A DNA stretch of 64,000 bases from Streptomyces buecherae. GTDB taxonomy: Bacteria; Actinomycetota; Actinomycetes; Streptomycetales; Streptomycetaceae. Shown here piece by piece: positions 1-59,169 of the stretch (the stretch's first letter is position 1; each line of letters begins with the position of its first letter). Location: contig NZ_CP060404.1 in assembly GCF_014295035.1 (NCBI RefSeq), positions 2,568,501 to 2,632,500 on the forward strand, given 5' to 3'. Both the position numbers and the translations under genes were made by a program. The notes below the pieces were generated by a model that saw only the letters and a list, made by a program, of their open reading frames with translations, had not been told where the DNA came from and made no database searches.

Positions 1-1068
1 GAGCACGCCGGAGGCGGCCTGCGGGTGGCCGGTGTTGGACTTGTACGAGCCCAGCCACAGCGGCTGCTCCGGGTCGCGGCCCTCGCCGTAGGTGGTCAGC
101 AGCGCCTGGGCCTCGATCGGGTCGCCGAGCGGCGTTCCGGTGCCGTGGCCCTCGACGGCGTCCACCTGGTGGGCGGTGAGCCCGGCGTCGGCCAGCGCCT
201 GGCGGATGACGCGCTGCTGCGATGAGCCGTTGGGCGCGCCGAGGCCGTTGCTGACGCCGTTGTGGTTGACGGCGGAGCCACGGATGACGGCGAGCACCCG
301 GTGGCCGCTGGCCCGGGCCGTGGACAGCTTCTCGACGAGCAACATGCCCGCGCCCTCGCCCCAGCCGGTGCCGTCGGCGGCGGCCGAGAACGACTTGCAG
401 CGGCCGTCGGGCGCGGCGCCGACGCCCATGTCGGGCGAGACGGCGGGGTTGGCCAGCACCGAGGCGCCGCCGGCCAGGGCCATGACGCACTCGCCCTGGC
501 GCACCGCCTGGGCGGCCAGGTGGAGGGCGACCGAGGAGGACGAGCAGCCGGTGTCGACGGTCAGGACGGGGCCCTCGAAGCCGAAGGTGTAGGCGATGCG
601 GCCGGTGGCGACGGCCGGGGAGATGCCGCCGCTGAGGAAGGAGCGCGCCTCGTCGGGCACCTGTTGCAGGCCGGTCCAGTAGCCCTGCGAGAAGGTGCCG
701 GCGAAGACGCCGACCCGGCTGCCGCGCAGCGTGTGCGGGGAGAGCCCGGCGCGCTCGAACGCCTCCCAGGACATCTCCAGGAGCAGCCGGTGCTGCGGGT
801 CCATGGCGATGGCCTCCGGCTCGCTGATGCCGAAGAACTCCGCGTCGAAGGAGGCCGCTTCGGCGAGGAACCCGCCCTCGCGCACGAACCGCATGCCGGG
901 CACGTCCACGCCGGCGCCCTCCAGGGCCGCCACGTCCCAGCCACGGTCGGTGGGCAGCGGGCCGACGGCGTCGCGCTCGTCGGCGAGTAGTTGCCAGAGC
1001 TGTTCGGGGGTCTCCACTCCCCCGGGCGCCCGGCAGGCCATGCCGACGATGACGATCGGATCGTCGTC
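1..1068 (-). other. Start of PKS module 11: divergent ketosynthase (partial)
   Basis: From residue 1621 of PKS G. It is clearly a [17 protein letters not shown] start, Cys1795, an [12 protein letters not shown] block and a KSN-x-GH lysine/histidine block. It differs from every other KS here at positions that are otherwise constant: [15 protein letters not shown] instead of [27 protein letters not shown] instead of [12 protein letters not shown], and [15 protein letters not shown] instead of [15 protein letters not shown]. The catalytic Cys-His-His set looks intact, so it is probably active but from another KS lineage. AT and later domains are off the edge. Confidence 0.88.
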
Positions 1069-58700: not shown

Positions 58701-59169
58701 TGGCGTACGAGACGCGGCCGGCGAGCACGCCGCGCTGGGCGCCGGCGAAGGCGTACGGGTCCGCCGTGCCGTGGCGCAGGGTGAGGTGGGCGTACTCGTC
58801 CCACATGGCGGCGGTGAACACGCCGGTGCGGCCGGCGCGCAGGCCATCGGGGTGGGTGCGGGAGTGCTCGGTGGCCTCCCAGCACAGTTCGAGCATGAGG
58901 CGCTGGTGCGGGTCCATGGCGGCGGCCTCGCGGGGCGAGATGCCGAAGAACTCCGCGTCGAAGGTGTCGACGCGCTCCAGGTAGCCGGCCCGCTCCGGGT
59001 GGCCGGCCGCGTCGTCGCCCTGGTGCGCCCAGCGCCCCGCCGGCGCCGGGCCGACCGCGTCGCGCCCCGCGCCCAGGAGGTCCCAGAACGCGCCGGGCCC
59101 GGCGGCGCCGGGCAGCCGGCAGGCCATGCCCACCACGGCGATGGGCGCGACGTTCTCGTACGTCCTCAT
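55705..59169 (-). CDS. PKS A: loading module KSQ-AT-ACP (propionate starter)
   Basis: 1154 residues. ATG at 59167-59169 after GGGGGA; the KS starts within ten residues with no docking helix, as expected for the first protein of the line. In the KS the active Cys is Gln170 (VDAGQASSLVAVH), the KSQ signature of decarboxylating loading modules; the downstream HGTGT histidine is kept. The AT has Ser646 (GHSQGE) and YASH 747-750, so methylmalonyl-CoA should be loaded and decarboxylated to propionyl. The ACP Ser1025 sits in GLTSL: the Asp normally before Ser is Thr. The C-terminus is a helical docking region ending DDEMFALINKELGIG, which should pair with PKS B. Two Gly/Ala/His-rich repeat linkers occur (56283-56358, about 57840-57890). 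It is 69 bases upstream of PKS B. Confidence 0.95.
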   Translation of the reverse strand: MRTYENVAPIAVVGMACRLPGAAGPGAFWDLLGAGRDAVGPAPAGRWAHQGDDAAGHPERAGYLERVDTFDAEFFGISPREAAAMDPHQRLMLELCWEATEHSRTHPDGLRAGRTGVFTAAMWDEYAHLTLRHGTADPYAFAGAQRGVLAGRVSYAMGLTGPSLSVDAGQASSLVAVHLACESLRRGESTVALVGGVNLIVAPGTTAGARAMGALSADGHCRPFDAGADGYVRGEGGAVVVLKPLAAARADGDVVHGLLLGSAVNNDGGGDSLTAPRRAAQEEVLRLAHERAGTDPARVQYVELHGTGTAVGDPVEASALGAVYGAGRPAGDPLRVGSAKSNVGHLEAAAGLVGLIKTVLSLRHRELPPSPHFTQEHPDIPLARLGLRVQTERGPWPHPERPLLAGVSAFGMGGTNCHVVLAQPPGAEPEHGAGDGAEDGAERGPAHDAARALADAAGEAYDTDPGARAGGPVPWVLTARGGAALRAQAERLRAHVAAHPADDHRDIGHALATTRTAFEHRAVLVGADRHALVAGLTALAAGERDAGLVRGVARGTERPVLVFPGQGAQWVGMARELLATSPVFAERMARCGAALAPHVDWDFAAAVNGPLDRVDVVQPLLWAVTVSLAELWRSYGVEPAAVVGHSQGEIAAAVVAGALTLEDGARVVALRSRLIGAHLSGHGGMLAVELPRAQARARVAPYADRAAVTVVNGPLSTVLGGEVAALEALAAGCAKDGVRTKRLPMDYASHGPGVAAIGDELLAGLADLAPRAPRVPFYSTVEGRVRPDTEPLDAAYWLRNEREVVDFERITRRLLADGHTVFIEVSSHPVLIMGIEETAEAVAEETAKAAGGAGAGGAGRVAVVGSLRRDEGGPDRFLRSVAAAFAAGVPVDWSPAFPGARPVDLPTYAFQRTSHWATPATGHPADADRSAAAHEAPHGADGAAPDTEHGAADNAAPGTGHGAAGDDRQPGQPHPLLARLAAAPAPEREAALLDLVREHAAAVLGHGTAGDIEPDKSFRDAGLTSLSAVEFRDVLGEATGLRLPSTVLYRHPTPQELARQLNTDLFPHQAPPAASELPALWADVESLERHLAAGAIGDADRARVSDRLRTLLWKIDATGPGDGGPAAAPATGDGLASASDDEMFALINKELGIG
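56283..56358. repeat. CCCCGTG/CTCCGTG microrepeat in PKS A
   Basis: Units of CCCCGTG and CTCCGTG separated by GGCGCGGCG-like spacers; encodes a linker of the APGTGHGA/DTEHGA type before the ACP. Confidence 0.7.

What the first reader, a model, noticed from the sequence alone, without database searches (positions are those of the whole stretch)
1..59169. Assembly line predicts a zincophorin-like backbone that is not zincophorin
Domain order seen directly: propionate starter, then extenders mm, mm, m, m, mm, mm, mm, mm, m, mm (mm methylmalonyl, m malonyl) with beta-outcomes ene, OH, ene, CH2, OH, OH, OH, OH, CH2, OH. From memory of its published structure, zincophorin has exactly this order from C21 to C1: C20=C21, C19-OH, C16=C17, methylenes at C14-15, oxygens at C13, C11, C9 and C7, methylenes C4-5, oxygen C3, and methyls at 20, 18, 12, 10, 8, 6 and 2. 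Two differences stand out. Zincophorin needs one more propionate before C21, whereas here the KSQ loading module feeds module 1 directly. And PKS G continues with module 11 instead of stopping at C1. Inference: an undescribed longer-tailed, shorter-headed relative, or a line with an extra module encoded elsewhere.
Basis: partly seen in the sequence, partly recalled or inferred. Interest (0 to 1): 0.8.

Follow-up and report, generated by a model that had tools for sequence, protein, structure and literature searches.

The report
Zincophorin-type assembly line missing its first module
This Streptomyces gene cluster is a close relative of the one that makes the zinc-binding antibiotic zincophorin, but it lacks the first chain-extension module, so it should make a smaller, undescribed version of the antibiotic with the same acid end.

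Summary
It is repeated domain for domain in a sister genome, G153, whose contig length equals that of Streptomyces ID71268. Published NMR assignments confirm that it matches zincophorin C21 to C1.
'Module 11' is not an extension module. It is a KS followed by an AT whose GHSxG motif reads GAGPG, with no ACP and no TE. A more distant cluster (G256) ends the same way, so the tail is not longer.
The head is shorter. G256 fuses its loading module to KS-AT(mm)-DH-ER-KR-ACP, the module zincophorin needs; no orthologue of that KS exists in this genome.
Predicted product: C30H54O7 (M 526.3870), zincophorin minus one propionate unit, one CH2 below the reported zincophorin B. The terminal KS-AT0 resembles the ACP-less release module CalA3, and no hydrolase gene was found in the cluster, so I propose that KS-AT0 releases the acid; this is inference. 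The ID71268 paper annotated the cluster as griseochelin-like (84%) and found no griseochelin. The missing module was not mentioned in the parts I read.

The parts
55705..59169 (-). PKS A: loading module KSQ (57907-59145), AT methylmalonyl type (56422-57492), ACP (55984-56232), class 1a C-terminal docking tail ([18 protein letters not shown])
   Evidence: Own HMMs; docking tails; AT keeps the Arg in ALRSR, GHSQGE and YASH
39592..55635 (-). PKS B: M1 (mm, DH, KR = ene), M2 (mm, KR = OH), M3 (m, DH, KR = ene)
   Evidence: M1 and M3 KS pair with G256 KS domains in the tree, M2 KS best BLAST match 77%
32900..39595 (-). PKS C: M4 (m, DH, ER, KR = CH2)
   Evidence: KS pairs with G256 C181 KS, 99/99 support
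22886..32863 (-). PKS D: M5 and M6 (mm, KR = OH each)
17640..22814 (-). PKS E: M7 (mm, KR = OH)
5954..17299 (-). PKS F: M8 (mm, KR = OH), M9 (m, DH, ER, KR = CH2)
1..5928 (-). PKS G, in-window part (the gene ends at window -1430, G000:C1:2567070): M10 (mm, KR, ACP), then the terminal KS-AT0
1..1059 (-). Terminal KS ('KS11', window -206..1059), DTGCSSSS with Cys, both His and Lys kept, followed outside the window by AT0 (GHSxG changed to GAGPG) and a stop; no ACP
   Evidence: 11 positions invariant in 26 extension KSs are changed identically in KS11 of G000, G153 and G256; dN/dS 0.07 against G153
59493..59894 (-). SnoaL-like cyclase of the SalBIII/ZinJ kind, the probable pyran-forming enzyme
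   Evidence: Pfam SnoaL_2; 5cxo 4.9e-27 and Lsd19 3.1e-47; alignment
60489..63350 (-). LuxR-family regulator with AAA domain (LAL type)
   Evidence: Pfam AAA_16 and GerE; same neighbour in G256

Best explanation
This is a zincophorin-family modular PKS that naturally lacks the first extension module. KSQ decarboxylates methylmalonyl-ACP to propionyl-ACP, which passes through class 1a docking tails straight to M1. Ten extensions (mm, mm, m, m, mm, mm, mm, mm, m, mm) give the C23 main chain with zincophorin's functional groups from C21 to C1 and an ethyl group where zincophorin has a 2-pentyl group. The SnoaL-like cyclase closes the C3-C7 pyran. The ACP-less terminal KS takes the chain from the M10 ACP onto its cysteine and lets it go as the free acid. 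Predicted product: C30H54O7, M 526.3870, [M+Na]+ 549.3762. Shown: domain order, missing module, absence of an orthologous KS elsewhere in the genome, conserved KS-AT0, cyclase homology. Inferred: starter unit, pyran closure, release by KS-AT0, and that the cluster is expressed.
For: Domain order in two genomes. KS tree: Load, M1, M3, M4, M10 and KS11 each pair with a G256 KS, whereas the KS of the G256 DH-ER-KR module has no partner. That G256 module sits behind the loading AT-ACP in one polypeptide. None of the KS domains in G000 or G153 resembles it above 75%, against 77-78% for orthologous pairs. Neighbours match zin genes: MMPL, TetR, LuxR, SnoaL. The ID71268 paper scores the same locus as griseochelin 84%. 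Zincophorin needs 12 units, eight of them C3 extenders. Release: KS11 keeps Cys/His/His/Lys, its AT Ser is replaced by Gly as in CalA3, and there is no ACP; no thioesterase II related to the G256 one lies in the cluster.
Against: No chemistry for this strain. The published zin sequence (KT345957) could not be fetched, so G256 stands in for it by architecture and accessory genes. G256 is fragmented: its M5-M8 were not recovered, and joining KSQ (C381) to the AT-ACP on C277 is an inference. AT0 evolves faster (dN/dS 0.31) than most domains, though some others reach 0.2-0.6. CalA3 is a separate protein with DH and KR remnants and is not a close sequence relative of KS11.
Confidence: 0.72

Rival explanations
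1. The line is primed with isobutyrate instead of propionate and makes zincophorin B (C31H56O7).
For: Zincophorin B from Embleya NEAU-wh3-1 (terminal ethyl replaced by H) equals an isobutyrate starter plus exactly these ten extenders.
Against: The loading module has KSQ with Gln kept and an AT with methylmalonyl motifs and the carboxylate-binding Arg, which fits decarboxylative propionate priming, not isobutyryl-CoA loading. No gene cluster for zincophorin B could be compared.
Confidence: 0.12
2. The strain makes zincophorin itself because the missing module is supplied in trans or by reuse of M1.
For: Trans-acting or iterating modules exist in other PKSs (general knowledge).
Against: No orthologue of the missing KS in G000 or G153. 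M1 has DH and KR but no ER, so its reuse would give a diene, not the CH2 at C23. Griseochelin was not detected in ID71268.
Confidence: 0.05
3. Module 11 is active and adds carbons beyond C1.
For: KS11 keeps its catalytic Cys, His, His and Lys.
Against: No ACP, no catalytic Ser in the AT, gene ends. Same terminus in G153 and G256.
Confidence: 0.03
4. Release is done by a thioesterase in trans (for example the one in the nigericin-type region), and KS-AT0 is only a docking or editing appendage.
For: TEII homologues at 53-59% identity lie elsewhere in the genome, e.g. G000:C1:140567-141271. G256 keeps a TEII next to PKS G, and Walther et al. assign release to ZinH.
Against: No such gene in the cluster of G000 or G153. 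In calcimycin the TEII CalG was shown not to release the chain, and CalA3 does.
Confidence: 0.35

Closest known systems
Zincophorin (griseochelin) cluster, S. griseus HKI 0741, KT345957
   Same: KSQ start, seven PKS genes, module order from zincophorin's second extension to its last, SalBIII-like cyclase, transporter, regulators, no TE domain
   Different: Ten working extension modules instead of eleven; PKS A lacks the fused mm/DH-ER-KR module; no hydrolase gene found in the cluster
Streptomyces ID71268 antiSMASH region 13 (PMC10127220), here G153
   Same: Same cluster, domain for domain
   Different: Reported only as griseochelin-like, 84%; the architecture difference was not mentioned in the parts read
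Zincophorin B, Embleya sp. NEAU-wh3-1 (PMC7143961)
   Same: Same ten-extender backbone
   Different: Implies an isobutyrate starter; one CH2 more than predicted here; no cluster described in the passages read
CalA3, calcimycin chain-release module (PMC10006239)
   Same: No ACP, AT Ser to Gly, KS with Cys-His-His-Lys, terminal position
   Different: Separate protein with docking domain and dead DH-KR; amidation is its main reaction, hydrolysis a side reaction; KS sequence not a close relative
SalBIII pyran synthase (5cxo)
   Same: Fold family, Tyr14, Asp38, Tyr54, Trp121
   Different: Asp104 is Ser; an Asp sits at the Lsd19 Glu65 position

Membership tests
Zincophorin biosynthetic cluster | KSQ loading module with methylmalonyl-type AT | tested here: met
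Zincophorin biosynthetic cluster | Eleven extension modules (eight C3, three C2) | tested here: not met
   Ten: seven mm, three m; the requirement is
Zincophorin biosynthetic cluster | First extension module mm with DH-ER-KR (CH2 at C23) | tested here: not met
   M1 has DH-KR; the module is present in G256 only
Zincophorin biosynthetic cluster | Order of the remaining ten modules | tested here: met
   one search compared with NMR assignments
Zincophorin biosynthetic cluster | ZinJ-like (SalBIII family) cyclase, transporter and two regulators | tested here: met
Zincophorin biosynthetic cluster | ZinH hydrolase in the cluster | tested here: not met
   No relative of the G256 thioesterase in the cluster of G000 or G153; ZinH itself not available
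Zincophorin biosynthetic cluster | Product is zincophorin | not testable with these tools
   No chemistry
CalA3-type ACP-less release module | No ACP, AT without catalytic Ser, KS with Cys-His-His-Lys | tested here: met
CalA3-type ACP-less release module | Stand-alone polypeptide with docking domain | tested here: not met
   KS-AT0 is fused to M10
CalA3-type ACP-less release module | Releases the chain | not testable with these tools
   Needs protein or knockout work
SalBIII pyran synthase | Essential dyad Asp38 and Asp104 | tested here: not met
   Asp38 kept, Asp104 is Ser in G000, G153 and G256

The most novel reading that the evidence does not exclude
The zincophorin family ends its assembly lines with a conserved ACP-less KS-AT0 didomain that hydrolyses the chain to the free acid, and one lineage has naturally lost (or never gained) a whole loading-fused module while keeping the rest intact, giving an ionophore one propionate unit shorter that is not yet described.
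Probability: 0.45. Interest if true: 0.62.

Novelty: new variant of a known kind. Interest (0 to 1): 0.47.

Why it matters
It is a natural one-module difference between otherwise orthologous assembly lines, useful for PKS engineering and for structure-activity work on the zincophorin tail. It gives an exact mass that a search for griseochelin would miss. It also points to a testable answer to how zincophorin-type acids are released, since the published proposal rests on a separate hydrolase that was not found in this cluster.

Tried and rejected
DNA search of plasmids with the regulator/cyclase stretch: only short LuxR and NTF2 matches. tblastn of the cyclase in plasmids: 36-44% matches only. 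A second draw of the genus sample gave no new cluster; the family draw gave only a 44% cyclase. The published zin sequence and the S. griseus genome were not reached. Frameshift in PKS C suspected from the ORF list, rejected: the gene is one open frame, and the listed ORF merely extends upstream. ACP comparison to locate the deletion breakpoint was inconclusive: the window loading ACP is 49% identical to the G256 loading ACP and 51% to the ACP of the missing module. The lipophilic mass series reported in ID71268 (560.3791 and homologues) does not fit the predicted product.

Full report
Observation. The window is G000:C1:2568501-2632500 of a single-contig 8.42 Mb Streptomyces genome. HMMs built from the window's own domains give, in gene order on the minus strand: A KSQ-AT-ACP; B M1 (mm, DH, KR), M2 (mm, KR), M3 (m, DH, KR); C M4 (m, DH, ER, KR); D M5, M6 (mm, KR); E M7 (mm, KR); F M8 (mm, KR), M9 (m, DH, ER, KR); G M10 (mm, KR), then a KS and a degenerate AT. 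Motifs for AT type are GHSQGE/YASH and GHSVGE/HAFH. All ten KRs keep the SS...Y...N pattern. Docking tails are class 1a for A, C, D and E into B, D, E and F, and class 1b for B into C and F into G, so A feeding B is consistent (class names from general knowledge).

Comparison with zincophorin. Walther et al. state twelve building blocks (propionate starter, three C2 and eight C3 extenders), a KSQ loading module, seven PKS genes zinA-zinG, no TE, a hydrolase ZinH, a SalBIII-like ZinJ, a transporter and two regulators. The window has ten working extenders, seven mm and three m, hence 30 carbons in place of 33.

Module 11. PKS G ends at window -1430. After M10 it has a KS with DTGCSSSS and intact Cys, His, His and Lys, then an AT in which GHSxG reads GAGPG, then a stop; there is no ACP and no TE (Pfam gives only a weak partial AT match). 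It cannot load or hold an extender. The sister genome G153 has the same terminus and G256 a shorter one. KS11 evolves as slowly as the other KSs (dN/dS 0.07), and AT0 at 0.31, a value some other domains also reach. Among 393 Streptomyces genomes, only G000, G153 and G256 have a KS clearly above the background of about 67% identity to it. The three KS11 sequences share eleven changes at positions invariant in 26 extension KSs, including loss of two residues in the loop before APDGRCK and N416K.

The missing module. G256 carries a relative of the cluster with KS identities of 74-78% for orthologous extension and terminal pairs and 65% for the KSQ. Its contig C277 reads loading AT end - ACP - KS-AT(mm)-DH-ER-KR-ACP - docking tail in one frame, which is the mm/CH2 module zincophorin requires. 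In a maximum-likelihood KS tree the KSQ, M1, M3, M4, M10 and KS11 of the window each pair with a G256 KS, while the C277 KS has no partner (M2 pairing unresolved in the tree, best BLAST match 77%). Searching G000 and G153 with the C277 KS finds 62 KSs each and none above 75%. The extra module is therefore not encoded elsewhere. M1 has no ER, so its reuse could not give the saturated C23 of zincophorin. In G256 the loading gene lies at the far end of the cluster beyond PKS G, TEII, MMPL and TetR, whereas here it stands directly before PKS B.

Known context. G153's contig length, 8,379,354, is that of Streptomyces ID71268, and its cluster lies inside that strain's antiSMASH region 13, 'griseochelin 84%'. 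Its authors looked for griseochelin and did not find it. A search for that mass would miss the product predicted here, C30H54O7, M 526.3870, although a silent cluster explains the result equally well. Zincophorin B from Embleya, C31H56O7, is exactly an isobutyrate starter plus these ten extenders, so the backbone is chemically precedented. Streptomyces philanthi bv. triangulum 23Af2 holds a broken remnant of the same cluster.

Release and ring closure. The only thioesterases related to the G256 one lie far away in this genome. CalA3 of calcimycin is an ACP-less module with the AT Ser changed to Gly whose KS releases the chain by amidation or hydrolysis, after its TEII had been ruled out as the release enzyme. 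By analogy the terminal KS-AT0 here most likely hydrolyses the M10-bound chain; this is inference. The cyclase keeps SalBIII Asp38 but has Ser at Asp104 and Asp where Lsd19 has Glu65, in all three intact clusters. SalBIII needs both Asp38 and Asp104, so the acid pair used here is unsettled.

Limits. The published zin sequence could not be compared directly. G256 is fragmented and unnamed. No expression or chemistry data exist for the window strain. Direction of change (loss here or gain in the other line) is not resolved.

Noticed in passing
window 59493-59894: The cyclase has Asp38 plus an Asp at the Lsd19 Glu65 position and Ser at SalBIII Asp104, also in G153 and G256. This is neither the SalBIII dyad nor exactly the MonB/Lsd19 pair, although the zincophorin paper says the key SalBIII residues are conserved in ZinJ.
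   Followed up: partly
L070-L072 (G393, Streptomyces philanthi bv. triangulum 23Af2, CP073042.1, about 1,657,800-1,673,600): Frameshifted remnant of the same cluster: loading module, M1 and an M2/M10-like fusion, then KS-AT0, with M3-M9 missing; its cyclase gene is damaged too. Apparent decay of the cluster in this species.
   Followed up: partly
G000:C1:2565815-2566690 (window -2685 to -1810): APH-family kinase gene beside PKS G, where G256 has a type II thioesterase.
   Followed up: no
G256 contigs C277 and C381 (L081, L075): AT stretches of different modules are nearly identical, which suggests recent gene conversion among AT domains and may explain why contigs break there.
   Followed up: no
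window 57907-59145: The loading KSQ motif differs between related genomes: DAGQASS here, DAGQSSS in G153, DTGQSSS in G393 and G256.
   Followed up: no
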